Assembly: GCA_030611265.1 (NCBI GenBank)
Contig: JAUWQD010000019.1
Coordinates: 1-45,713, forward strand
Source: Methanosarcinaceae archaeon
GTDB taxonomy: Archaea; Halobacteriota; Methanosarcinia; Methanosarcinales; Methanosarcinaceae
Reading direction: 5' to 3'
Length of the DNA stretch: 45,713 nucleotides
The notes beneath the pieces were generated by a model, which searched no databases, was not told the origin of the DNA, and saw nothing but the letters and a program-made list of their open reading frames with translations. The translations under genes and the position numbers were made by a program. Positions 3,141 to 23,729 of this stretch are shown piece by piece; positions within the stretch are counted from its first letter, which is position 1; every line of letters starts with the position of its first letter.

Positions 3141-5050
3141 CTTTCCAGGGAAACAATATCGCCCGTTCCCTCATAAACAGAAATCCCCGCAGGAAGTCGC
3201 TCTGCAAATTCCTCTGATACCAAACATCCGCACAGTGCCCGAATTTCCTCAATCTCCAGAAGATGTTTTGGAACCAGAAGATCATAGTCCTCCTCAGCGA
3301 CCTTGATAAACTTCAACCCTGCCTCGTCTGCGGCAGACCGCAGACCAAAACCAACATCTGTGCGCCCGTTCTTTACCGCATCACAAACGGCGCGGTGCGT
3401 TTTTGCACCGGAATCATAACCTGTTATCGATCTTGTCATTTCACGAAGTGAAATGCCCTTTTCTCCGGCAAGTTCCCCGAGTTTGATATCCAGAAGCGCG
3501 CGAGTCCCAGACCCACGATTGCGGTTGATGAGGCGCTGTCCAATGATGTCCTCAATCTTTGATATGCCACTGTCGTGTCGGACGATCAATCCCTGCTCGC
3601 GCCTGTATCCCTTGATGAGTATGACATCGGACAATCCCATCCTTTCAATGATAGGCATGTTGTACTCGCCAGATGCATCAGGCATGTTGACGCCTGCGAT
3701 ATCGGCAGTACCATTGGAGATAGCACTGAAACCACCACTCGAACCTGTGCCGATCGCCCTGATGTTGAGTCCGGTCAAGTCTTCAAACACATCAATGCCT
3801 GGACAGGAACCACCTACAAATAACACATCGGGTCGCGTCACATCACCGAACAGGGTCACATCCACATGTGTTCCCGCATCCATGAATTCAACCTCAGGTC
3901 GTATCTCGATAAAACCATCCGCATCCGCAAGTGTGGTTATCGCGCCGGAACCTTTGTCGGCAGGATACACCTTCCCGCGCACAAGTCCAACAGGTAAAAG
4001 CTGATGTCTGCCCTGTGAACGTATGCTCGTACCAAGAACTGCAGTTGTTGTTGTTTTTGAAGCGGTGCTTGCACCGATGGTGCGCCGGATGAGAGGTGCT
4101 ACGAATTCGTTGAAAATGGTAAGTGCAGATGTGGGATTGCCGGGCAGTCCGATCGTGGGCACACCGTCAATCAAGCCAATCACAACCGGTTTGCCGGGTT
4201 TGATGTTGATACCGTGTGCGAGAGTCGTTCCCTTTTCCTCGATTATTTTGTACATGATATCTCCCGCACCGGCCGATGTGCTGCCGGATGTCAGTATGAT
4301 ATCACATTCATCAGTCGCAGTGTCAATAGCTTCTTCCATATCCGCTTCATTGTCGCGGATAATTCCGTACATGATGGGAGTTGCGCCGCATTCGATGACA
4401 CCTGCGCTGAGTGCGTATGAATTTGTGTCGTATATCTTTCCGGGCTCAAGTGGCTCGCCCGGTCGGATGAGTTCATCCCCTGTAGATATAATACCAACCT
4501 TTACACTTGCGGAGAGGATTTCCCGTTTCCCGATCGCAGAAAGCACGCCAATCTCGCGGGAACCGATACGGGTACCTTTGCGAAGTACACGCTCGCCCCT
4601 CATAATATCAGAACCCGCGCGCATGATGTTCTCGCCGATGTGCACGGGGCGGTCTATGAATATCTCATTGTCCTGCCGTTTTGTGTGCTCGACCATCACG
4701 ACAGCATCAGCACCATCGGGTATCGGGGCACCTGTGGCGATATCTACCGCTTCGCTGTCGTCTACGAAAAACTTATCCGCACATCCGGCTGCGACTATTC
4801 CTATAAGTTTCACCGAACAGGGATTGGTCTCACTGGCTTGATACGTGTCTTTTGCACGAACGGCGTAGCCGTCCATTACGGATCTGTTAAAAGAAGGAAC
4901 ATCCACAGAGGAGATAATATCCTCTGCGATGATGTGATTGGTTGAATCTTCAATCGAGGTGGATACGGATGCAGGCTGTATCTTGATCTCACGTACAAGG
5001 ATACGTGCGTCCTCAACCGATATCAGTTCACGGAATTCTTTGCGCTGCAT
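3125..5050 (-). CDS. moeA: Molybdopterin molybdenumtransferase MoeA fused to a PBP-like domain
   Basis: This 641-residue protein inserts molybdate or tungstate into adenylylated molybdopterin. Residues 1 to about 400 are MoeA: SVDVPSFNRSVMDGYAVRA near the N-terminus, IPDGADAVVMVE, the MPT-binding GIISTGDEL and LTSGSTSAGAGD, and GLPGNPTSAL. From about residue 425 (VLFVGGSCPGIDVFEDL) a second domain resembles periplasmic oxyanion-binding proteins (GTGSSGGFSAISNGTADIAG; NRNRGSGTRALLD), a fusion known in archaeal MoeA. I chose the ATG at 5050 (MQRKEFREL), because starting upstream would run through the next gene and add 34 residues that do not look like MoeA. It follows the small membrane gene by 11 bp, so the two are probably cotranscribed. 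The appended domain may sense or deliver the metal oxyanion (inference). Confidence 0.93.
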   Translation of the reverse strand: MQRKEFRELISVEDARILVREIKIQPASVSTSIEDSTNHIIAEDIISSVDVPSFNRSVMDGYAVRAKDTYQASETNPCSVKLIGIVAAGCADKFFVDDSEAVDIATGAPIPDGADAVVMVEHTKRQDNEIFIDRPVHIGENIMRAGSDIMRGERVLRKGTRIGSREIGVLSAIGKREILSASVKVGIISTGDELIRPGEPLEPGKIYDTNSYALSAGVIECGATPIMYGIIRDNEADMEEAIDTATDECDIILTSGSTSAGAGDIMYKIIEEKGTTLAHGINIKPGKPVVIGLIDGVPTIGLPGNPTSALTIFNEFVAPLIRRTIGASTASKTTTTAVLGTSIRSQGRHQLLPVGLVRGKVYPADKGSGAITTLADADGFIEIRPEVEFMDAGTHVDVTLFGDVTRPDVLFVGGSCPGIDVFEDLTGLNIRAIGTGSSGGFSAISNGTADIAGVNMPDASGEYNMPIIERMGLSDVILIKGYRREQGLIVRHDSGISKIEDIIGQRLINRNRGSGTRALLDIKLGELAGEKGISLREMTRSITGYDSGAKTHRAVCDAVKNGRTDVGFGLRSAADEAGLKFIKVAEEDYDLLVPKHLLEIEEIRALCGCLVSEEFAERLPAGISVYEGTGDIVSLERLNTS

Positions 5051-5061
5051 GTGATTTCGAT

Positions 5062-5292
5062 CTACTCTTCTTCCATGTAATTTGCGAGGGTCTTGTTCAA
5101 AGTGAAGACACGGTATGCTACATACCACAATCCTAGAATATACACTGCCCATGTAAGAATTGAGAGGGTTTTCAATTCAGGGATCGGGTCAAGTGCTTCA
5201 AAGGTGATGACAAGAGTTACCGGCATGAGAAGCAATATCGCAATAACAGAATCGTTCAGGTACTTTATATTTTCAATTATTATCTTATCCAT
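5062..5292 (-). CDS. Small two-helix membrane protein
   Basis: A 76-residue protein with two hydrophobic helices (about residues 15-32, VIAILLLMPVTLVITFEA, and 45-63, ILTWAVYILGLWYVAYRV) and an acidic C-terminus (NYMEEE). It lies 11 bp upstream of moeA on the same strand and probably leads that transcript. I do not recognise the family. The compact two-TM layout and charged ends look like a genuine small protein and not an antisense shadow. A role in molybdate or tungstate metabolism is suggested only by position. Confidence 0.6.
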   Translation of the reverse strand: MDKIIIENIKYLNDSVIAILLLMPVTLVITFEALDPIPELKTLSILTWAVYILGLWYVAYRVFTLNKTLANYMEEE

Positions 5293-5370
5293 GTATACAC
5301 CCTACCACTTGATCTAAACATAACAATAGTATAATAGTTATTACTAATTAAACTTTTGAAAACAATAAAC

Positions 5371-5432
5371 ACGAGAAAATGCTCACTTCGTTCGCATTAA
5401 CTCGCACTATATATTTATAAAATATATACTAC
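5371..5432 (+). repeat. Intergenic hairpin repeat, copy A
   Basis: It starts acgagaaaatgctcacttcg and ends with the AT-rich block actatatatttataaaatat. The first half folds as AATGC - 11-nt loop - GCATT. It shares its layout with copies at 6656-6720 and, inverted, 11824-11884. It lies between the divergently placed ends of ilvE and the moeA leader gene. Confidence 0.75.
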
Positions 5433-5478
5433 AAAAAAATGGACACAAAGGGAGGTCCCCCTCGCGAAAATAGTGATA

Positions 5479-6357
5479 TTAAGGATTGATCGGTGTGCCG
5501 CTGTTTTGTGTGATGTGTTCAAATGCTTCGATCATCTTCTTTGTAATAGGACCGGGTTTTCCATCGCCGATCATTCGTCCGTCAAGCTTTGTGATCGGAG
5601 CGGATTCGGCAGCCGTGCCCGTTACGAATATTTCGTCTGCTGTGTAGAGGTCGAACAGGCCAATGTTCACTTCGGTGATGGAATAATCCATCTCCTTTAA
5701 GATGTCAATTGCTGCGGCTCTTGTTATGCCTTTGAGATTGTTGATGGTTGGAGGGGTTACGACCTTGCCGTTCTTGATGACAAAGATGTTGTCGCCCGAT
5801 CCTTCGGAAATGTAGCCGTTGTTGTCAAGGAATATTGCCTCATCGCCGCCTTTTTCGTTCGCTTCGATCTTTGCGAGGATGTTGTTGAGGTAATTCAACG
5901 ACTTGATGTTCGGCGAGAGCGCATCCGGCGCGTTCCGCCTGATCGCAACCGTTATTGCAGTCAAGCCGACTTCATAGAGGTCACCATACATTGCGCCCCA
6001 TTCCTGTGATATGATATAGATATTCGGTGTTGGACATTGGCGTGGATCGAGTCCCAGATCGCCCACCCCTCTTGAAACGATGGGCCTTATGTATGCGTTT
6101 GTCAAGTTGTTTTTCCGCAGGGTCTCAAGGATCGCTTCTTTCATTTCCTCTTTTGACATCGGGATCTTAAGCGCGATCGCTGTTGCAGAGTCGTATAACC
6201 TGTCGATGTGCTCGTCTAACTTAAAAACACGCCCGTTGTAAGCCCTGATGCCTTCAAAGACACCGTCGCCGTAAAGGAAACCGTGGTCATAAAGAGAGGT
6301 AGTAGCCTGGGATTTTGGCACATATTCGCCGTTTGAATAGATCAGTAGTTCACTCAT
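5479..6357 (-). CDS. ilvE: Branched-chain amino acid aminotransferase
   Basis: A 292-residue class IV PLP aminotransferase, the usual length, that interconverts valine, leucine and isoleucine with their 2-oxo acids using glutamate/2-oxoglutarate. Family signatures are clear: [20 protein letters not shown] near the N-terminus, [19 protein letters not shown], the PLP-lysine segment [34 protein letters not shown] and VTGTAAE. A Shine-Dalgarno-like gaggc precedes the ATG (minus strand). It is monocistronic here: tRNA-Arg lies upstream on the opposite strand and a repeat element downstream. leuD and leuB of the same pathway are about 36 kb away in the window. Confidence 0.95.
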
Positions 6358-6531
6358 GTGTAAGCCTCGTCAAAGGTGATGCTATAAGCATCCTTGATAT
6401 TGACAACAGTATATATTAATATTTATGCTGGAAAATGGATATTTAAAAACCTTTGTGAGATTTTTGTACAAAAACCTTTTATGCATAAACATCTATTTCG
6501 TACTCCACTTACAGCAAACACCATCCTACGC

Positions 6532-6606
6532 GGTCCCGTGGCTTAGCCAGGATATAGCATCGGGCTTCTAACCCGGGGGTCAAGGGTTCGAATCCCTTCG
6601 GGATCG
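6532..6606 (+). tRNA. tRNA-Arg (anticodon TCT)
   Basis: The full cloverleaf can be drawn by eye. Acceptor GGTCCCG pairs with CGGGATC, with one G-U pair. A D-arm follows. The anticodon stem TCGGG/CCCGG carries the loop CTTCTAA, giving anticodon TCT. The T-arm is AAGGG-TTCGAAT-CCCTT, and G is the discriminator base. CCA is not encoded. A TATA-like ttatgcata lies about 45-50 bp upstream. No intron. Confidence 0.95.
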
Positions 6607-6655
6607 CTTATTTTTCTTGTTTTTAATCATGGGCATAGATTTAAGAAACCCAACA

Positions 6656-6720
6656 ACTCGAAAATCCTTGCTACGCTCGGATTTACTCGTACTATATATT
6701 TATAAAATATATACTACGAG
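6656..6720 (+). repeat. Intergenic hairpin repeat, copy B
   Basis: Same layout as the copy at 5371: hairpin AATCC - ttgctacgctc - GGATT, then the AT-rich block. Here the AT-rich block is itself a near-perfect palindrome (ctcgtactatatatt / aatatatactacgag, one mismatch in 15 pairs). It lies just downstream of tRNA-Arg. Confidence 0.75.
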
Positions 6721-6819
6721 AAAGGGACACTATCCCATTTTCCAGTTATTTTTATACACCGACTTTAAGTAAAATCCGTTAAATTAACATTTAATTGTCA
6801 TCGATTATTATAAAAAATC

Positions 6820-6893
6820 AACCGCTGAGGACGCCGAGAGCGCAGAGAATTCAGACATAGACAACTCTGCGGCCCTCTGCGCCCTCTGCGGTG
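6820..6893. repeat. Long imperfect inverted repeat with CTCTGCG motifs
   Basis: The left arm (6820-6847, containing accgctgaggacgccgagag) pairs imperfectly with the right arm (6865-6893, containing ctctgcggccctctgcgccc). They are separated by about 17 nt. Very similar CTCTGCGnnCTCTGCGGTGAA elements are, from memory, scattered through many bacterial and archaeal genomes as mobile or REP-like hairpins. It could also act as a terminator or insulator. Confidence 0.65.
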
Positions 6894-6993
6894 AATTTTG
6901 TCCCATATTCATTGAAATAACTGGATTTTGGAACTGTGTCCGAGAAAGGGTTAAATAAATATTAATACCATATCATGTAAATAGGTGATATAA

Positions 6994-7281
6994 ATGGCAT
7001 CAGAAATTAAGAACCCAGCAACTATGACGGATTTCTTAACGGATGTTGTAATCAGGACCCTCAAATCCAAAATCGAAGAGATGAGTCATAAAATAAATGA
7101 TATTCATGAAAACCTGAAATATTTTGAGAAAAAATATGGCATGAAAAGTGAGGAGTTCTACAAAAAATACATAGATGGAACTCTTGGAGATGACATGGAT
7201 TTTCTTGAATGGAAAGCATCTACAGAGATATATAATGAGTTAAAAGATGAAAAAACGGCGCTGATAGAGGCAATTGGATGA
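6994..7281 (+). CDS. Putative TumA-like antitoxin, coiled-coil protein
   Basis: A 95-residue, charged, largely helical protein (residues 20-50 look like coiled coil: KSKIEEMSHKINDIHENLKY). SD AGGTGA lies 7 nt before the ATG. Its stop overlaps the start of the next gene by ATGA (7278-7281), so the two are translationally coupled. The downstream product resembles TumE toxins, whose partner is a small upstream antitoxin, and the role is inferred mainly from that. No DNA-binding domain is obvious. It might otherwise be an unrelated small partner. Confidence 0.6.
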   Translation: MASEIKNPATMTDFLTDVVIRTLKSKIEEMSHKINDIHENLKYFEKKYGMKSEEFYKKYIDGTLGDDMDFLEWKASTEIYNELKDEKTALIEAIG

Positions 7282-7646
7282 TCAGCGATTATTTTGATTT
7301 TTTAAAGAAAGTTGCGAAAAATAATCCATCAGTCAAGAATTTCAGGCTTATCAGAGAATTTATAGGCGTCGATAAAGGTTTTATCAGATTCGTAATCGAG
7401 TTGAGAGATTATTCCGAATTCCATGTTTTTGAATATGTTAATTCGGATTTGCACAAAATCGATTACTCATACCACTGGCAAAATAAAGATAAAATGTTGA
7501 TAACGAGGTGGGATAACGCGCCCCATCATCGCGATATTGATACATTTCCCCACCATGTACATGAAGGAGATTCCGTAAAGCCGTCAAATGAAATGACATT
7601 TGTGGATATACTGAACAAGATTGGAGAAATTATTTTACGCTATTAA
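7278..7646 (+). CDS. TumE-family (DUF6516-like) toxin
   Basis: A 122-residue protein with the hallmark run of the family. YHWQNKDKMLITRWDNAPHH is followed by FPHHVHEGDSVKPSNEMT and a C-terminal VDILNKIGEIIL helix. The WQ..., RWDNAPHH and FPHH.H blocks with conserved histidines are, from memory, typical of TumE-type toxin-antitoxin proteins, proposed to act on RNA. It is coupled by a 4-nt overlap to the putative antitoxin. The pair sits in an AT-rich accessory stretch beside RNase III. Activity is inferred from family only. Confidence 0.72.
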   Translation: MISDYFDFLKKVAKNNPSVKNFRLIREFIGVDKGFIRFVIELRDYSEFHVFEYVNSDLHKIDYSYHWQNKDKMLITRWDNAPHHRDIDTFPHHVHEGDSVKPSNEMTFVDILNKIGEIILRY

Positions 7647-7677
7647 TATACGTTCAAACAGGAATTACCTCTTGTTT

Positions 7678-8436
7678 TTAATTCGTTGATCCCATTTTTT
7701 TTAGATATTTTTCAGCAGCATCTGCTTCTGCATCTTTTATCTTATTCCCGATTCCAATGGAGACTTGCTCACCGCAAATATACAAGCCAATTGTAAACAT
7801 CTTTTTGTGATCCGGTCCTTGTTCATCCAGCAATCTATATTCTGGAAAATCCCCGCCATTCTTATCGCAAATTTCACTCAATTTCCCTTTAGGGTTTAAG
7901 CCATCAATTTTGCCTAAAGCACCACGCAAATCAAAATGATTGCATACAAAATTATTTGCTTCAATGTATCCTTGATCAAGATGAATGGCAGCAATTAGCG
8001 CTTCGATCACATCGTCAAATATATCACTAATATTTTCCAAAACGCCATATAATATATATTTTTCAAGTTTTATGTCTTCAGCCAATGGTTTTAAACTTTC
8101 ATTGGATGCCAATATTTTCTTAATATCAGTTAAAACACCCTCTATGGTTCGTTTTTGTGCTCTTGCATATTCTTCAATTTCTTCATCGTGATAAAAATAT
8201 TCAGCAACAATTAAACCCAATACCGAATCCCCAAGGTATTCCAGTTTTTCATAATTATCGGATTCGAGATCGTTTACTTTTTTAAATGCATCTAATTTCG
8301 TTTTATCCCCACTGAAAAGCGAGCTATGTAATAGCGCTTGTATCAAATATTTAGTATCATTGAACTGAACACCAATTATGTTTTGAAATTCATATAAATC
8401 TTCAGGACTTACAGTCAAGTCATTATTTGGTTTCAT
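7678..8436 (-). CDS. rnc: Ribonuclease III
   Basis: A 252-residue dsRNA endonuclease of bacterial domain order. The RNase III domain carries NYEKLEYLGDSVLGLIVAEY (Glu66, Asp70) and DDVIEALIAAIHLDQG (Asp142, Glu145), so all four metal-binding catalytic acids are present. From about residue 181 a double-stranded-RNA-binding domain follows (NPKGKLSEICDKNGG to DAEADAAEKYLKKM). A strong SD (aaggagaaa) precedes the ATG. RNase III is patchy in archaea, which usually rely on splicing endonuclease and other enzymes, so lateral acquisition is likely. The gene is AT-rich like its neighbours. The family call is secure; the substrates are unknown. Confidence 0.93.
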   Translation of the reverse strand: MKPNNDLTVSPEDLYEFQNIIGVQFNDTKYLIQALLHSSLFSGDKTKLDAFKKVNDLESDNYEKLEYLGDSVLGLIVAEYFYHDEEIEEYARAQKRTIEGVLTDIKKILASNESLKPLAEDIKLEKYILYGVLENISDIFDDVIEALIAAIHLDQGYIEANNFVCNHFDLRGALGKIDGLNPKGKLSEICDKNGGDFPEYRLLDEQGPDHKKMFTIGLYICGEQVSIGIGNKIKDAEADAAEKYLKKMGSTN

Positions 8437-8580
8437 TTGAATTTCTCCTTGTTTTTTGATTTAATGAAACTATCATTTTTTAACACAAAATCGCAAACAA
8501 CTTTTTACATAAAATTATATATTTTATGACTTCATATATTAAATGTTAAATTTAATTGACGTTATAATTGAGGTGAACAC

Positions 8581-9198
8581 ATGAATTTTAAACCATTTTG
8601 TAACCCAGTTTTGATAAATATATTATCTCCACTTATAATCGCCGCAATAATCTTAATCACCATATTATCAAATAATTTAAATCCAATTGAAATTATTTCA
8701 AGTTTAGTAATTAAAGATTTAATTGCAGTTTTGGGTATTAGTGCTTTTGTTATGGGTATTTCTTTTATACTTGGCGCTAATATAAAACAATCACACGATT
8801 ATCACTTTAAGAGTTTGGAATTTAGCATTAAATACCAAATTTTAATTTTTGGTGGAATGTATGTATTATATATTATTTATATAATCTCAGCTATTTTTTA
8901 CGATATTTCGGTACCATTACTTTTATTTATACCACTCTTATTGATTTTACATGGGTATTGTTTAACTACGAAATGTGAAACTGTTATTTTAAAAATGGTT
9001 ACTTTTGATGAACAGGGTTCAAAAAAAATAGAAACAAGAAATTGTTTGGAATTATATGATACGACAGATAAAGATTATCGGTTTAAAGATTCTAAAGGAA
9101 ATGAGTTTATAATACCAAATAATCAAGTTCTAGAGATTTATTCAGGTGAGTGTAAAGGCGAAGAAAGCCCGATAAAAAAGATAGAGGGAAAAGATTGA
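8581..9198 (+). CDS. Membrane protein of unknown function
   Basis: 205 residues with about four hydrophobic helices (around 12-30, 45-66, 90-108 and 112-128), then a soluble, charged C-terminal tail of about 70 residues with beta-rich character (YDTTDKDYRFKDSKGNEFII). SD gaggtg lies 7 nt before the ATG. The gene is very AT-rich, like the RNase III gene it diverges from. I do not recognise the family. Its 3' end abuts the tRNA-Asp 3'-end copy at 9202. Confidence 0.7.
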   Translation: MNFKPFCNPVLINILSPLIIAAIILITILSNNLNPIEIISSLVIKDLIAVLGISAFVMGISFILGANIKQSHDYHFKSLEFSIKYQILIFGGMYVLYIIYIISAIFYDISVPLLLFIPLLLILHGYCLTTKCETVILKMVTFDEQGSKKIETRNCLELYDTTDKDYRFKDSKGNEFIIPNNQVLEIYSGECKGEESPIKKIEGKD

Positions 9199-9201
9199 AA
9201 A

Positions 9202-9214
9202 CGTTCGGACCGGG
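9202..9214. other. Copy of tRNA-Asp 3' end (possible attachment site)
   Basis: acgttcggaccggg (9201-9214) exactly matches the 3' part of tRNA-Asp at 10162-10175 and in the same orientation, covering the discriminator, acceptor strand and T-stem 3' strand. A fragment of this kind at the far end of a segment starting at a tRNA 3' end is the classic mark of site-specific integration. A 14-base chance match in a window of this size is unlikely. Confidence 0.55.
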
Positions 9215-9329
9215 GGTTACGCGGTGCTGTCCGTGAAGGAGTCATAAATATTTATGATTGCATTACACACGATGAACTGAAAGCGGGATATCTCAAACAT
9301 ATTCCCCAACTTGCCGTAACTCCGTAATT
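9203..9329 (+). pseudogene. Remnant of a reading frame
   Basis: A frame reads GAVREGVINIYDCITHDELK and continues AGYLKHIPQLAVTP to a TAA at 9327-9329. It looks protein-like but has no start codon with SD, and begins within the tRNA-fragment junction. It is probably the C-terminal remnant of a gene cut by rearrangement. The family is not recognised. Confidence 0.35.
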
Positions 9330-9341
9330 GTCTTCATAGTG

Positions 9342-9374
9342 GGCTTTGTGTATAAAGTACATCCTGTGTAAAAA
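9342..9374 (+). repeat. Dispersed repeat, copy 1 (ggctttgtgtataaagt type)
   Basis: A 33-base stretch starting ggctttgtgtataaagtac is identical to 23697-23729. Its first 17 bases also start the inverted pair at 25551. The flanks differ. It looks like a solo terminal repeat of an insertion sequence or a MITE fragment. Confidence 0.65.
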
Positions 9375-9480
9375 AAATAGAAAGATATTTGCAGTATGTC
9401 ATCTTAATTAAGTATAATGTACTTAAAAATATAACCGATGGTTATAATTAAATGAAATTAATTGAATTGGGTGATTTAAA

Positions 9481-9891
9481 TTGTGGGAAATCGACAAACA
9501 TCTTCAAAACGATGAAAAAATTATATATACAGGAAGTCCAGACTGGAGTGGATATTATATGGGGTTTGTTTTTATTATCCTTACAATATTTACAATAATA
9601 ATCCCTATACTTATTTTAGGAATAATCTATTTACATAAATCATCAACAAAATATATGATAACGGATAAAAGAGTGTTTAAGCGGACAGGGATTATTTCTG
9701 AAGATTTCAAATCTTCAACCTTTAAACATATAACATCTTTAAGAATTAAGCAAGGAATAATTGGTAAAATATTTGGTTTTGGACATATTGTTATAGATAC
9801 TGCGGGAAGCGGCTCAGGTTTTGAATTTGTCTGGTTTTGTGTAAAAAATCCGTTTCAAGTGAAAAATGAAATCGAAAAATGTATTGATTAA
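9481..9891 (+). CDS. Membrane protein with bacterial PH domain (bPH_2/YdbT-like)
   Basis: 136 residues. A short N-terminal segment with the usual EKIIYTGSPDW motif is followed by a hydrophobic hairpin (about residues 27-50, FVFIILTIFTIIIPILILGI). A bPH_2 domain comes next (KYMITDKRVFKRTGIISEDF, then IVIDTAGSGSGFEFVW). These proteins anchor PH-like folds at the membrane; no ligand is known. The start appears to be TTG at 9481, preceded by gggtga. It lies inside the segment bounded by tRNA-Asp and its 3'-end copy, so it may be cargo of that element. Confidence 0.8.
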   Translation: MWEIDKHLQNDEKIIYTGSPDWSGYYMGFVFIILTIFTIIIPILILGIIYLHKSSTKYMITDKRVFKRTGIISEDFKSSTFKHITSLRIKQGIIGKIFGFGHIVIDTAGSGSGFEFVWFCVKNPFQVKNEIEKCID

Positions 9892-9923
9892 GTATTTTGA
9901 TTTTATTTCACCCTTAACCGATG

Positions 9924-9944
9924 GAGAAGTTTTGTTGTCTTCTC
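9924..9944 (+). terminator. Small hairpin after the PH-domain gene
   Basis: gagaag (9924-9929) pairs with cttctc (9939-9944) around a T-rich loop, 33 bp after the stop codon. It is a plausible 3'-end structure but short. Confidence 0.3.
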
Positions 9945-10058
9945 GATTCTGACTTGTGTTGAAATTGTCCGTATTTGTCATATGAAAAAAGTACAGTGTC
10001 GGCAAAAAAGTTGTTTATATAGTATCGTTTCATTTTACAGTTGCATATCTTGATCTTC

Positions 10059-10148
10059 ATGGATCTGGCTGCCGGCAAAGTTAGATCTAAAATTAAGATT
10101 GTCCTTTTTGTACAATCGTCTGCAGACAAGAATAAAAAAAATCTGTAA
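10059..10148 (+). CDS. Possible 29-residue small protein
   Basis: ATG at 10059 gives MDLAAGKVRSKIKIVLFVQS followed by a Lys/Asn-rich end. A good archaeal TATA-like tttatata sits at 10014-10021, placing a start site roughly 15 nt before the ATG. No SD is visible. It lies in the tRNA-Asp-bounded segment. It could be a noncoding transcript instead. Confidence 0.25.
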   Translation: MDLAAGKVRSKIKIVLFVQSSADKNKKNL

Positions 10149-10162
10149 AAAAGAAAGTGATA

Positions 10163-10235
10163 CGTTCGGACCGGGATTCGAACCCGAGTCGGAGCCTCGA
10201 CAGGGCTCCATGATAGGCCACTACACTATCCGAAC
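10163..10235 (-). tRNA. tRNA-Asp (anticodon GTC)
   Basis: Minus-strand cloverleaf: acceptor GTTCGGA/TCCGAAC, D-arm with GTGTAGTGGCCTATCA, anticodon stem GAGCC/GGCTC with loop CTGTCGA (anticodon GTC), T-arm TCGGG-TTCGAAT-CCCGG, and discriminator G. CCA is not encoded. The 3' end is duplicated at 9202-9214, so this gene is the likely integration target for the 1-kb segment to its left. Confidence 0.95.
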
Positions 10236-10340
10236 ATGTGGTTATGCGAGTACACCCTAAAGCATGTTTTTGCATTTAAGCCTTTTTGTTAGAATGGCTG
10301 AAGGCCATTCGTTTGAAAAGCTCTATGCAATGTTAAAAGG

Positions 10341-10452
10341 TCCCGCCTCCCAGACTCGAACCGGGGACATCGCGGTGCCTGCGCGGTATGTGCGACTTAA
10401 AGTCGCATGAACCATACTACAGCCGCGCACTCTACCACTGAGTTAAGGCGGG
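10341..10452 (-). tRNA. tRNA-Tyr (anticodon GTA) with intron
   Basis: Acceptor CCCGCCT/AGGCGGG has the archaeal tRNA-Tyr C1-G72 pair and discriminator A. The D-arm is ACTC-AGTGGTA-GAGT. The anticodon stem CGCGG/CCGCG carries CTGTAG followed by A, giving anticodon GTA. A 40-nt intron (10377-10416) interrupts between positions 37 and 38, the canonical site. The exons are 10417-10452 and 10341-10376, and the mature length is 72 nt. Inside the intron a second stem (TGCGACTT/AAGTCGCA) is visible. It should be removed by the splicing endonuclease at a bulge-helix-bulge. Confidence 0.92.
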
Positions 10453-10600
10453 TCAATGTTAACAATAGGCGATGCACCACTTCCATACGCATAATGGTAC
10501 TTATCCTTTTCGCCAAACGAATGTAAAAAAGAATTGATTGAGCAGATACCGGATGCATGAACATCCATTTTCCGCCCAATTGTCACCTTTAACTTGAGGC

Positions 10601-11797
10601 TTAGAAAGTATCCAGCTCACCGTTGATCACCATATCTGTGATCTTGGTGATGTTCTCAAGCCAGTCATCAATAACAACCTCTGATTCAGAACGGATGGTT
10701 GCAAAGTTCGTACCATCCTTAGGAATTACCTGTGCGCTTGCAACAAGAGGCTGGTCGATAGGCTGACCGATCTGTGAAAGGATCCTCACATACACATCCT
10801 CGACATCAGGAACCGCTTTCACGATATCCTTTGCCATCTGTGTAGAAAGAAGGTTGTATATCTTTCCAATATGGTTGATCGGGTTCTTACCACTGGTTGC
10901 TTCCATACTCATTGGACGGTTTGGAGTGATCAATCCATTGCAACGGTTTCCACGACCGACAGATCCGTCATCTCCCATTTCGGCAGATGTTCCGGTAACA
11001 GTCAGGAACACCGAGCCCTCCTCGATCTTATCTGCAGTATTAACATGAGCGACAACGTTGCGGTCTGTGTACTTGCCTGCAAGGTCAACAACATAATCCT
11101 GCATCTCTTCCTTGATGTTAATGTAATGGTCAAGGTCATCCACATGCCTGCCAACAATACCGCATCCGATCGTGAGCGTCATGTCATCCCCATCACGAAG
11201 ACCCATGACCTTAATATCCTCTCCAATACCCGGAATTGTTTTCTTAAGGTCTGTGATAAGCATCCGCTCGGTATTGTACACGATCGTCTCAAGTTCAGAG
11301 AACGGTGCATGACCCACACCAAATGACGTATCATTTGCCATTGGGATCTGTTCCCTGTTGAAAACGTCACGTAGGTCTGAAGAACCTGTTCCGAGTTTGC
11401 AGTCGATGATCATATCCCTTTCAAGATCGATGTCTGCGATCGTGTTCTTCACATATTTACGAGCCGCTTCAACTGCAACAGCCTCAGCAGCGATCTCCTG
11501 ACCGTCAAATTCCTTTGTAGCTCTTCCAACAAGCAATGTGTAGATTGGTTTTATGACCTCTCCGCCGCCAAATTGTGGATTGGAACGTCCTGCTACGATC
11601 TGTGTCTCATCAGTGTTGTGGTGAAGCACCACACCGCACTTTTCGATATATTCCTTACACAATGCGCGGCTGACAGCCTCTGCCAGTCCATCAGAAATAC
11701 TGTCAGGATGACCGATACCCTTTCGCTCGACAAGTTCGATCTGCTGCTTTTCCACTGGAGTCTCTACGAGGTGCTCGACTTTGATATTTCGTATCAT
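10601..11797 (-). CDS. metK: S-adenosylmethionine synthetase, archaeal type
   Basis: A 398-residue archaeal AdoMet synthetase (also called mat; Pfam AdoMet_Synthase) that makes SAM from methionine and ATP. Family landmarks: [20 protein letters not shown] near the N-terminus (ATP and metal site), [35 protein letters not shown], and [20 protein letters not shown] with [20 protein letters not shown]. The length matches the archaeal family and differs from bacterial MetK in sequence. SD gagga precedes the ATG. It diverges from hisG across 279 bp that hold a hairpin repeat. Confidence 0.97.
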
Positions 11798-11823
11798 TTT
11801 ATCCTCTTATGTCTATTTTCAAT

Positions 11824-11884
11824 AGTATGTATTTTATAAATATATAGTGCGAGTTAATCTGACCGTCAGCGAAGATTTTCTCGT
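11824..11884 (-). repeat. Intergenic hairpin repeat, copy C
   Basis: On the minus strand it starts acgagaaaatcttcgctgac and ends with the same AT-rich block as the copies at 5371 and 6656. The hairpin is AATCT - 12-nt loop - AGATT. It lies in the metK leader, between metK and hisG. Confidence 0.75.
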
Positions 11885-12042
11885 AACCCTGCTTATAAAT
11901 CAAAATATTGCTATCTAGATTGTAATAATAAATACTATATATATTTAATATTTGCCATTCAACATAATAACCAGCCGTAATAATTTACATAACATATTCT
12001 GAAATATATGATATAACTGCAAAAAGGATAATGTAGAATCAT

Positions 12043-12052
12043 TTTAAATATA
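12043..12052 (+). promoter_or_regulatory. Putative TATA box for the hisGAB transcript
   Basis: tttaaatata lies 25-34 bp before the hisG ATG. This matches an archaeal TATA box whose start site would be close to the ATG, giving a very short or absent leader. Confidence 0.45.
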
Positions 12053-12076
12053 TAAGAAACTTAAAGGACCCTCACA

Positions 12077-12931
12077 ATGATACGTATTGCAATACCCAAC
12101 AAAGGTCGGCTGCACGACCCAACTGTTTCCTTGTTCAAAGAAGCCGGTCTACCGGTTCTTGAAGGAGCAACCAGAAAACTGTTCGCAAAGACCACGGATC
12201 CTGATATAACATTCCTGTTCGCAAGAGCCGCAGACATCCCCGAATACGTGCAAGACGGCGCCGCAGATGTCGGCATCACCGGTCTGGACCTGATATCTGA
12301 AACGGGTGCGGATGTCGATGTGATACTTGACCTGGAGTTTGGTCGTGCCAAACTCGTACTCGCCGTCCCCGACGATTCACCGATTACATCACCACAAGAT
12401 CTGGAAGGCATGCGTGTCGCAACAGAATTCCCGAACATCACAAAACGGTATTTTGAAGAACTCGGAGTAAACATCGAAGTTGTCAAAGTTAGCGGAGCAT
12501 GTGAAATGACCCCGCATGTCGGGATAGCTGATGCGATCGTTGACATATCAAGCTCGGGCACAACGCTCCTGACAAACCATTTGAAAGTAATAGAAGATGT
12601 ATTCTCATCATCCGTACGCCTGATAACAAACCGTGAAAGTGCAGCTGAAAAGGAAAAGATACAATACATAAAAACCGCGATAGAAAGCGTATTGCATGCG
12701 AAAGGCAAACGATACCTGATGATGAACGTTCCGGCTGACAAACTGGACGCTGTGAAAAACGTACTTCCCGGACTTGCCGGACCAACCGTTATGAAAGTCG
12801 AATCCGATGACACGATCCTGGCTGTTCATGCTGTTGTGGATGCTGATGTGATATTTTCCACCGTCAGCAAACTCAAAGATGTTGGAGCAGGAGGTATTCT
12901 GGTCATACCTATCGAACGTATGATGGTATAA
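12077..12931 (+). CDS. hisG: ATP phosphoribosyltransferase, long (HisG_L) form
   Basis: A 284-residue first enzyme of histidine synthesis, joining PRPP and ATP. Visible motifs: MIRIAIPNKGRLHDPTVSLF, GAADVGITGLDLISETGADV and the PRPP loop VSGACEMTPHVGIADAIVDI followed by SSSGTTL. The C-terminal region from about residue 212 (YLMMNVPADKLDAVKNVLPG to VGAGGILVIPIERMM) is the regulatory domain that binds histidine in the long form, so HisZ is not needed. It is first of three adjacent his genes. Confidence 0.97.
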   Translation: MIRIAIPNKGRLHDPTVSLFKEAGLPVLEGATRKLFAKTTDPDITFLFARAADIPEYVQDGAADVGITGLDLISETGADVDVILDLEFGRAKLVLAVPDDSPITSPQDLEGMRVATEFPNITKRYFEELGVNIEVVKVSGACEMTPHVGIADAIVDISSSGTTLLTNHLKVIEDVFSSSVRLITNRESAAEKEKIQYIKTAIESVLHAKGKRYLMMNVPADKLDAVKNVLPGLAGPTVMKVESDDTILAVHAVVDADVIFSTVSKLKDVGAGGILVIPIERMMV

Positions 12932-12945
12932 AGGTGGAAAGGAAC

Positions 12946-13683
12946 ATGTTTGAAGTGATACCTGCAGTTGATATGAGAGGCGGCAAATGTGTCCAGTTGG
13001 TACAGGGAGTACCGGGCAGCGAACTGGTATCCATTGACGACCCCGTACAAGTTGCACTTGACTGGGTGGCACAGGGTGCAAAGACACTACACCTTATAGA
13101 CCTTGACGGTGCGATAGAAGGTACGCGCAATAATGCACCCATAATTGAGAGAATCGTCAAGGAATGCAAACCTCTGGGAATGTCGATACAGGTCGGCGGA
13201 GGTATCCGGTCATTTGAAGACGGTGCAGCGCTTTTAAATATCGGTGTTGACAGGATAATTTTGAGTACGGCGGCACTCAATGAGCCGGAATTGATCAAAA
13301 AACTCGCGGACGAGTTCGGAAGCGAGCACATAAACGTGGCACTTGATGCAAAGAACGGCAAAGTATCCATTGAGGGATGGACAAAGGAGTCTCAATTCAC
13401 ACCTGTTGATATGGGAACAAAGTTTGAAGAACTTGGGGCAGGAAGCATTCTTTTTACAAATATTGACAGCGAGGGATTGATGCAAGGCGTAAATCCCGAA
13501 CCTACGCGAGCGCTTGTGGAATCGGTGAATATACCTGTCATAGCATCGGGTGGCGTCACAACCCTTGAAGACATTGTTGCTCTAAAAAACACGGGTGCAT
13601 CCGGTGTTGTTGTAGGCAGTGCGCTTTATATGAACAAATTTACACTTCCAGAAGCGATAAATATTATCAGTGACGATTCATAA
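12946..13683 (+). CDS. hisA: HisA, ProFAR isomerase
   Basis: A 245-residue TIM barrel that isomerises ProFAR to PRFAR. Catalytic Asp9 sits in VIPAVDMRGGKCVQL, and the second Asp in VALDAKNGKVSIEGW. Phosphate-binding QVGGGIRSFED and ASGGVTTLEDI are present. I chose the ATG at 12946 (MFEVIPAVD), with aaagga just upstream. An in-frame GTG at 12934 would add four residues and is less likely. It starts 14 bp after hisG and 27 bp before hisB, indicating one operon. Confidence 0.95.
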   Translation: MFEVIPAVDMRGGKCVQLVQGVPGSELVSIDDPVQVALDWVAQGAKTLHLIDLDGAIEGTRNNAPIIERIVKECKPLGMSIQVGGGIRSFEDGAALLNIGVDRIILSTAALNEPELIKKLADEFGSEHINVALDAKNGKVSIEGWTKESQFTPVDMGTKFEELGAGSILFTNIDSEGLMQGVNPEPTRALVESVNIPVIASGGVTTLEDIVALKNTGASGVVVGSALYMNKFTLPEAINIISDDS

Positions 13684-13710
13684 ATAGATTAAGACAGTAA
13701 GGGGAATCTC

Positions 13711-14286
13711 ATGAGAACCGCAAAGATATCACGCAAAACGAGCGAGACCGATATTCAAATGAAACTTACACTTGATGGCACAGGTTCGTCCGACATCAGT
13801 ACAGGCATCGGATTCTTTGACCACATGCTTACATCATTTGCAAGGCACGGTAACTTCGATCTTACAATTGCCGCAAGAGGCGACCTTATGGTTGATGAGC
13901 ACCACTTGATCGAAGATACGGGTATCGTTCTTGGACAGGCGATTGCAAAGGCTGTTGGTGACAAAGCCGGTATTGCGAGATTTGGAGAGGCTCGTATCCC
14001 TATGGACGAAGCAATGGCAGACGTAGTGCTAGATCTTGGAGGGCGCAGTTATCTGGTGCTGGATGCCGAATTTGAAGCACCACAAGTTGGTGAGTTCAAT
14101 ACACAGATGGTGGGGCACTTCTTTGAATCGCTTGCCGAAAATGCTAAAATGAACCTTCATGCGATGGTGTACGGTGAGAATGACCACCACAAGATCGAAG
14201 CACTGTTCAAGGCGTTTGCATATGCACTGCGCCGCGCTGTCGTTGTTGAGGGTAGTGATGTTAAGAGTACGAAAGGTGTGCTGTAA
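13711..14286 (+). CDS. hisB: Imidazoleglycerol-phosphate dehydratase
   Basis: A 191-residue monofunctional IGPD, the usual archaeal length without a phosphatase domain. The metal-binding His clusters are visible: [49 protein letters not shown] and [22 protein letters not shown] ggggaa precedes the ATG. It is last of the hisG-hisA-hisB run; the other his genes are not in this window. Confidence 0.97.
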
Positions 14287-14368
14287 ACGGTAAATCACCA
14301 TTTGATCAGTATCAGTCAAACGTTGCGACGGCACACCCAAAATTATTTCGCCTAAATTATTGTGTGCA

Positions 14369-14388
14369 ATTATTGTTGTGACAATAAT
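14369..14388. terminator. Perfect hairpin between convergent hisB and MFS genes
   Basis: attattgt and acaataat form an 8-bp perfect stem with loop tgtg, located 82 bp after hisB and 43 bp after the MFS stop. The placement between convergent genes suggests 3'-end formation or a barrier. Confidence 0.35.
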
Positions 14389-14431
14389 GTTTGAAAACCG
14401 TTAGCAGAAACGAAAAAGGAACATCTTGCCA

Positions 14432-15634
14432 TCACCCCATCATCTCATGCCGCTTTGGCATCAACACAAGCAGAAGCACTGCACAGAGGAGTGCTGTTGC
14501 CGCACCGTAGACAAAGGGAGCCGATGAGCCAACAAATTCCCACAAAAGTCCGGCGATGATGCTTGCAAAGACTATCGTGATACCTGTTGCGGTATGATAT
14601 ATCCCAAGAGCCGTGCCTCGCTTCTCGCATGGCACAAGGTCTACCACATACGCTTTCCCGACACCTTCCGTGAATGCTGCATAGACACCATAGATCGCAA
14701 AGAGCGGCCAGACATAAACATTTGCCGGCATCAGTGCGAATCCAAGGTACACTGCGGCAAATATCAGGAAACCCCACAACATGAGACTGCGCCGCCCGAG
14801 TTTATCAGATAACGTACCTGCGGGATATGAAACGATCGCATTGGTGATGTTGTAGACGATATAGCAAAGCAATACGGCGGTTACTGTGAAACCCACATCC
14901 GCTGCCCTTAAGATCAAGAACACGTCGCTGGAATTCCCAAGTGCAAATATGACCGATATCAACAGGAACACCTTGAAGTCTCTGCCAAATTGCGATATCT
15001 TGAATGATATTTTTGTATTGGGGACCTGTCTTCGTTCGGAGACAAGGAATGCGACAAGTAGTATGCTGACAAGTGCAGGCAGAAATGCGACTATGAAGAG
15101 CAAACGATAGTTGTCGGCTGTCAGATGCAGGATCAAGATCGCGATCATGGGACCAAGCACTGCCCCAAAAGAATCCATTGTTCTGTGAAACCCATAAGAT
15201 CTTCCCCTCTGCGCCGGTGGTGATGAATCTGCGATCAAAGCATCACGTGCAGACGTTCGCACACCTTTGCCGAACCTGTCCAAAAAACGCGCCACAAGAA
15301 CAAGCGGCCAGACGTATGCAAATGCCATCAAAGGTTTTGAGATGGCGGATACGCTGTAGCCGCACATGACAAAAGGTTTCCGCTTCCCTGTTTTATCGGA
15401 ATACCACCCGGATATGACCTTCAGGATACTTGCAGTACCCTCGGCAATCCCTTCAATGAACCCTACGATATACATCGGCGCGCCCAGTACGGCTGTCAGG
15501 AATATCGGGATAACAGGATACAGCATCTCACTTGAGATGTCTGTGAACAGGCTTACAAGACCGAGTATGAACACGTTCTTTTTTATTCCCGGTATCAGGA
15601 AATCAGGTTCTTCTTTCGGTTGTTGTGTTTGCAT
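14432..15634 (-). CDS. MFS transporter
   Basis: A 400-residue major facilitator with about 12 helices. The MFS loop motif appears as GWYSDKTGKRKP after TM2, with a second copy in the other half (GTLSDKLGRRSLM). RFLDRFGKGVRTSARDALIA and EKRGTALGIYHTATG resemble the YfcJ/Bcr-type exporter subgroup. The substrate is not predictable. I chose the ATG at 15634 (MQTQQPKEEP) because it follows ggggaaaa. The ATG at 15646 would add four residues. Convergent with hisB. Confidence 0.9.
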   Translation of the reverse strand: MQTQQPKEEPDFLIPGIKKNVFILGLVSLFTDISSEMLYPVIPIFLTAVLGAPMYIVGFIEGIAEGTASILKVISGWYSDKTGKRKPFVMCGYSVSAISKPLMAFAYVWPLVLVARFLDRFGKGVRTSARDALIADSSPPAQRGRSYGFHRTMDSFGAVLGPMIAILILHLTADNYRLLFIVAFLPALVSILLVAFLVSERRQVPNTKISFKISQFGRDFKVFLLISVIFALGNSSDVFLILRAADVGFTVTAVLLCYIVYNITNAIVSYPAGTLSDKLGRRSLMLWGFLIFAAVYLGFALMPANVYVWPLFAIYGVYAAFTEGVGKAYVVDLVPCEKRGTALGIYHTATGITIVFASIIAGLLWEFVGSSAPFVYGAATALLCAVLLLVLMPKRHEMMG

Positions 15635-23696: not shown

Positions 23697-23729
23697 GGCT
23701 TTGTGTATAAAGTACATCCTGTGTAAAAA
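23697..23729 (+). repeat. Dispersed repeat, copy 2 (ggctttgtgtataaagt type)
   Basis: Identical over 33 bases to 9342-9374, starting ggctttgtgtataaagtac. It lies 41 bp after the tRNA methyltransferase stop. Flanks outside the repeat are unrelated to copy 1. Confidence 0.65.

What the first reader, a model, noticed from the sequence alone, without database searches (positions are those of the whole stretch)
9202..10175. One-kilobase segment bounded by tRNA-Asp and a copy of its 3' end
acgttcggaccggg occurs at 9201 and again at the 3' end of tRNA-Asp (10162), in direct orientation, with the extra copy on the side where an element entering at the 3' end would leave it. The segment holds a PH-domain gene, a dispersed repeat and a gene remnant, but no integrase. 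It may be a minimal integrative element mobilised in trans or the relic of a larger one.
Basis: partly seen in the sequence, partly recalled or inferred. Interest (0 to 1): 0.55.

Follow-up and report, generated by a model that had tools for sequence, protein, structure and literature searches.

The report
Scar of a decayed tRNA-Asp provirus
A one-kilobase stretch beside an aspartate tRNA gene in a methane-eating archaeon is most likely the shrunken leftover of a virus- or plasmid-like element that once inserted there; its integration gene survives only as a short tail, so it is a well-documented but ordinary genomic scar.

Summary
ACGTTCGGACCGGG occurs at 9201-9214 and at the 3' end of tRNA-Asp (10162-10175), with no third exact copy in the assembly. 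The "gene remnant" is decisive: 9217-9327 encodes the last 36 residues of a tyrosine-recombinase integrase, 64% identical to the 335-aa integrase of a 10,196-bp element at the equivalent tRNA-Asp of Methanolobus vulcani PL 12/M. That element has a 17-bp att repeat, its integrase pointing at the tRNA and ending about 100 bp from it, and an inovirus pI-like ATPase. G009 and G018 keep broken related integrases at tRNA-Asp. Best reading: a classical integrative element, possibly archaeal inovirus-like, entered tRNA-Asp in an ANME-3 lineage, then lost nearly everything in a deletion ending at the left att core. "Relic" is supported; "mobilised in trans" has no positive evidence. New member of a known kind.

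The parts
9201..9214 (+). left att copy (displaced original 3' end of tRNA-Asp), ACGTTCGGACCGGG
   Evidence: exact repeat; continuous with the native left flank in empty-site genome G003
9160..9200 (+). native flank with an eroded terminator-like hairpin; in four same-genus relatives (G001, G002, G003, G005) the corresponding hairpin sits directly beside tRNA-Asp
   Evidence: local alignment to G003 score 217, against 21 for the right-hand flank
9215..9327 (+). integrase remnant: last 36 codons (9217-9324, stop 9325-9327) of an archaeal tyrosine recombinase, reading toward tRNA-Asp; homology starts at the edge of the att core
   Evidence: 64% identical to the M. vulcani PL 12/M integrase C-terminus; tblastx E 7.5e-11; score 113 against a maximum of 47 in 1000 shuffles
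9342..9374 (+). 33-bp dispersed repeat
   Evidence: also at window 23697-23729
9481..9891 (+). small PH-domain (bPH_2) gene, TTG start; cargo or later arrival
   Evidence: one paralogue in the same genome at C84:28541-28962, 78% nt, homology limited to the gene and about 10 bases before it; no tRNA in the 19.9 kb fetched there, no att copy and no Phage_integrase hit on C84
9892..10161 (.). unassigned right end of the segment; does not match the native flank
10162..10175 (+). right att copy = 3' end of the present tRNA-Asp
10162..10236 (-). tRNA-Asp(gtc), integration target, recognised as intact by ARAGORN

Best explanation
A classical (type II) integrative element, with its tyrosine-recombinase gene at the right end pointing at the tRNA, recombined between its attP and the 3' end of tRNA-Asp. 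It rebuilt the tRNA 3' end with its own copy and pushed the original 3' end, with the native terminator-like hairpin, to the left (supported by the geometry and the empty site). Later a deletion ran from the edge of the left att core to 36 codons before the end of the integrase gene, removing nearly all of the element (supported by the junction; timing and mechanism are inferred; a short G-run microhomology is possible). What remains has no complete integrase and so cannot excise itself. A PH-domain gene and a dispersed repeat sit between the integrase stop and the tRNA, as cargo or as a later insertion (not resolved). The parent element was of the kind still present in Methanolobus vulcani PL 12/M, perhaps an archaeal inovirus-like provirus (inferred from the integrase alone, about 0.4).
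For: Exact 14-bp repeat with the extra copy on the 3' side. Empty site in G003: window 7672-9214 and 10132-10287 map to one continuous stretch, L036:5349-6984. Segment absent beside tRNA-Asp in all 5 of the 6 same-genus genomes whose contigs show that flank, G001-G005, and absent as a whole from the other 118 of 119 genomes searched. Integrase C-terminus in the segment, in the expected orientation. A 10,196-bp element with the same layout at tRNA-Asp in M. vulcani PL 12/M. Broken integrases 68-71% identical to that one at tRNA-Asp in G009 (two pieces about 1.6 kb apart) and G018; a more distant one (about 29%) with two in-frame stops at tRNA-Asp in G015.
Against: Only 36 codons of one gene tie the segment to the parent element; the next-best tblastx pieces are weak (E 0.004 over 13 residues and worse). 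The spacing from integrase stop to tRNA is 834 bp here against about 100 bp in M. vulcani, so about 730 bp, including the PH gene, is not explained by that parent. No left att copy of 11 bp or more was found for G018 or G009 in the 14-16 kb held. The window is a contig of a draft assembly (98.3% complete, 3.6% contamination). G003 is a draft too (73% complete) and its contig ends 52 bp beyond tRNA-Asp. An older insertion followed by precise excision in G003 cannot be told from insertion after the split. In one search, 17 of 21 distinct tRNA-Asp left flanks (1.6 to 9 kb each) hold no such integrase piece.
Confidence: 0.9

Rival explanations
1. A minimal element, about 1 kb, that moves as it is: two att sites and a cargo gene, excised and inserted by an integrase encoded elsewhere.
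For: Both 14-bp copies are intact; the genome encodes four Phage_integrase proteins elsewhere (contigs C32 and C66), two of them 43-45% identical to the M. vulcani integrase.
Against: No full copy of the segment in the other 118 of 119 genomes searched and no second full copy in its own. It contains a truncated integrase, as a relic would and a streamlined mobile unit need not. The left core may have been trimmed by the deletion (14 bp, against 17 bp plus an imperfect extension in M. vulcani).
Confidence: 0.05
2. SSV-type (type I, suicidal) integration, in which att lies inside the integrase gene and integration itself splits the gene, so that a C-terminal piece beside the left att copy is normal.
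For: The remnant starts exactly at the edge of the left att copy.
Against: In M. vulcani PL 12/M the whole 335-aa integrase lies inside the element and ends about 100 bp before tRNA-Asp. In M. vulcani, G009 and G018 integrase sequence continues upstream of the joining point, with no att sequence in the 60 bp shown (for G018 only 8 residues more). No integrase N-terminal piece was seen at the right end.
Confidence: 0.03
3. A non-integrative origin: a partial tRNA duplication by ordinary recombination, or an assembly join.
For: The repeat is short (14 bp) and the assembly is a draft.
Against: Exact 14-mer found only twice in the assembly; empty site in G003 and integrase C-terminus adjacent.
Confidence: 0.02

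Closest known systems
10,196-bp integrated element at tRNA-Asp of Methanolobus vulcani PL 12/M (NZ_FNCA01000002.1; L111/L123)
   Same: Same target tRNA gene and side, repeat made of the tRNA 3' end, integrase at the right end reading toward the tRNA, integrase C-terminus 64% identical.
   Different: Ten times longer with a full-length integrase; repeat 17 bp with an imperfect extension; none of the ten proteins scanned matches a PH model; integrase ends about 100 bp (not 834 bp) from the tRNA.
Archaeal inoviruses of Methanosarcinaceae (Roux et al. 2019, PMC6813254; passages seen)
   Same: The M. vulcani element carries a pI-like morphogenesis ATPase (phrog_1675, E 4e-6); the paper reports proviruses in this family and a PCR-confirmed circular form in Methanolobus profundi MobM.
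   Different: No inovirus gene was found in the window segment; the link runs through the integrase only. 'Vulcani' does not occur in the paper's main text; its supplements were not seen.
Type II (classical) archaeal tyrosine-recombinase elements (review PMC8371274; passages seen)
   Same: tRNA 3'-end target; integrase not split by integration in the intact relative.
   Different: Here the integrase is reduced to 36 codons.

Membership tests
tRNA-targeting integrative element (type II archaeal integrase) | Flanking direct repeat equal to the tRNA gene 3' end | tested here: met
tRNA-targeting integrative element (type II archaeal integrase) | Empty site in a close relative, with native flank continuous with the tRNA | tested here: met
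   G003
tRNA-targeting integrative element (type II archaeal integrase) | Encodes its own complete tyrosine recombinase | tested here: not met
   only the last 36 codons remain; hence a relic, not an active member
tRNA-targeting integrative element (type II archaeal integrase) | Excises to a circle | not testable with these tools
   no reads available
SSV-type (type I) element | attP inside the integrase gene, gene split on integration | tested here: not met
   the intact relative's integrase ends about 100 bp before the tRNA; integrase sequence continues upstream of the join in relatives
Archaeal inovirus-like provirus | pI-like morphogenesis ATPase | tested here: not met
   not found in the segment, nor in this genome or the other six of its genus at E 1e-4; present in the M. 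vulcani relative
Element mobilised in trans | Same bounded unit at more than one site or in more than one genome | tested here: not met
   119 genomes searched, whole segment found in its own only, once

The most novel reading that the evidence does not exclude
The 961-bp unit is a still mobilisable mini-element in ANME-3 that lost its own integrase, carries a PH-domain gene as cargo, and is moved by one of the four tyrosine recombinases encoded elsewhere in the genome.
Probability: 0.04. Interest if true: 0.6.

Novelty: new member of a known kind. Interest (0 to 1): 0.25.

Why it matters
It documents past integration of an element, related by its integrase to a Methanolobus provirus-like element, in the uncultured ANME-3 methane oxidisers, and points to tRNA-Asp as a repeatedly used entry point in Methanosarcinaceae. 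My search of the held library for ANME-3, virus and integrase together returned two papers; I opened one, and its passages on integrases concern ANME-1; the other was seen in the listing only. As a phenomenon, a decayed provirus scar at a tRNA gene is ordinary.

Tried and rejected
SSV-type splitting was considered because the remnant abuts the att copy; rejected on the intact relative and on integrase sequence that continues upstream in three relatives.

The dispersed repeat as an insertion-sequence end: at ten loci with copies (eight distinct places) only the first 60 residues of the largest ORFs were looked at by eye; none was obviously a transposase, no library was used, so this stays open.

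The PH gene as virus cargo: no relative found in viral contigs. In 119 genomes its only close relative is a paralogue in the same genome (70% aa); six other genomes have 19-32% matches. PADLOC models did not match it.

Relatives of the M. vulcani 409-aa replication-like protein: none in phage records or viral contigs. Relatives of its integrase: none in viral contigs.

A match of the right flank 10131-10161 to G005 looked like native sequence at first; direct reading showed A-rich similarity, while the hairpin flank belongs with the left copy.

Counting caveat: 26 rows (21 distinct loci, the window included) were screened for integrase pieces left of tRNA-Asp; 4 of 21 had them (window, M. vulcani, G009, G018), and 17 had none. 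L111-L113 had been fetched because they had integrase hits, so this is not a frequency. L119, L124 and L128 gave no usable tRNA-Asp flank; L135 was not given. G015 was not among the 21.

Full report
Observation. The 14-mer ACGTTCGGACCGGG lies at 9201-9214 and 10162-10175 in direct orientation, the second being the 3' end of tRNA-Asp(gtc), 10162-10236, minus strand. The assembly has no further exact copy. Chance does not explain it: mean 0.04 matches at up to two mismatches in 100 shuffles of the window, none with two.

Host. I therefore take the host as an ANME-3 archaeon; that this corresponds to Candidatus Methanovorans rests on recall, a paper listing and the taxonomy entry.

Empty site. 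In G003 the region left of the segment (window 7672-9214, 80% identical) and the tRNA-Asp side (10132-10287, 92%) map to one continuous piece of contig C167, with overlapping ends. Its hairpin flank runs directly into ACGTTCGGACCGGG and tRNA-Asp. The window's left-copy flank aligns to it with score 217; the right flank of the segment scores 21. G001, G002 and G005 carry the same kind of hairpin flank next to tRNA-Asp, and G004 a different flank, all without the segment. G006's contig ends before the site. The segment as a whole is absent from the other 118 of 119 genomes searched; partial matches are the PH paralogue, the dispersed repeat and short weak hits. G003 is 73% complete and its contig ends 52 bp past tRNA-Asp.

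What the segment holds. Window 9217-9327 translates to LRGAVREGVINIYDCITHDELKAGYLKHIPQLAVTP and stop. A search of 119 genomes found it alike to the C-terminus of integrase-like frames: G090 64% (E 3.8e-9), G009 58%, G035 59%, G018 56%, and weaker ones, some of them unrelated. Scored against the full M. vulcani integrase it gives 113, against a maximum of 47 in 1000 shuffles. The tyrosine of IYD is invariant in the eight sequences aligned; that it is the catalytic one is recalled from the family. The PH gene (9481-9891) is bPH_2 and has one paralogue elsewhere in the genome. The 33-bp repeat at 9342-9374 is scattered in ANME-3 and more distant genomes.

The intact relative. G090 corresponds to Methanolobus vulcani PL 12/M (contig length and tRNA position). 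There a 17-bp copy of the tRNA-Asp 3' end lies 10,196 bp from tRNA-Asp. Between them are a 335-aa integrase (Phage_integrase E 1.4e-22) that reads toward the tRNA and ends about 100 bp from it, a pI-like ATPase (phrog_1675, E 4e-6), and a 409-aa protein with HVHYLLF, which I read by eye as an HUH-type replication motif; neither library matched it. Inoviruses, including a PCR-confirmed circular form in Methanolobus profundi, are known in this family (PMC6813254, passages). G009 keeps two integrase pieces at tRNA-Asp, residues 175-293 and 283-335, ending 2,212 and 476 bp from the tRNA; what lies between them looked by eye like an insertion sequence and was not tested. G018 keeps residues 292-335, ending 128 bp from the tRNA (sequence). 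In G015 a more distant integrase (about 29%) with two stops lies 124 bp from tRNA-Asp in the same orientation. Integrases 50-52% identical to that of M. vulcani sit in the same way at tRNA-Ser in three genomes, G012, G020 and G035. Most of the remaining integrases had either no tRNA in the locus or one upstream of the gene.

Mechanism. The left copy plus its hairpin is the native site; the segment lies between it and the tRNA, as integration at the tRNA 3' end leaves it. Integrase homology begins directly after the left core: GGTTACGCGGTG follows it, and the same letters occur in a G030 integrase fragment. A deletion from the att core into the integrase explains why the remnant abuts the repeat, and may explain why the repeat is only 14 bp. 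M. vulcani, G009 and G018 show no att sequence at the corresponding integrase position (60 bp looked at), which speaks against att-in-integrase (SSV-type) splitting.

Limits. The tie to an inovirus-like parent rests on the integrase alone, and integrases are exchanged between elements (recalled); I give that part about 0.4. The origin of about 730 bp between the remnant and the tRNA is unsolved. Whether insertion postdates the split from G003 or G003 lost the element precisely cannot be told.

Noticed in passing
window 6994-7646: Two-gene toxin-antitoxin-like pair (TumE toxin, Pfam E 1.7e-22; PADLOC PDC-M44A/B) about 390 bp downstream of tRNA-Arg (6532-6607).
   Followed up: no
window 7678-8436: RNase III with a double-stranded-RNA-binding domain in an archaeon; DNA of 80-85% identity over this region is found in same-genus genomes G001, G002, G003 and G005. 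That RNase III is uncommon in archaea is recalled.
   Followed up: no
window 10339-10427: ARAGORN reports tRNA-Stop; by eye it looks like an intron-containing tRNA-Tyr (gta) that the program mis-splices.
   Followed up: no
window 9342-9374 and 23697-23729: 33-bp dispersed repeat shared among same-genus genomes and found in some genomes of other families; nature unknown.
   Followed up: partly
L111 (Methanolobus vulcani PL 12/M), about 4585-14780: 10.2-kb provirus-like element at tRNA-Asp with a pI-like ATPase and a full-length integrase; ATPase relatives at E 1e-4 in 8 other of 119 genomes, all in the same family as the window.
   Followed up: partly
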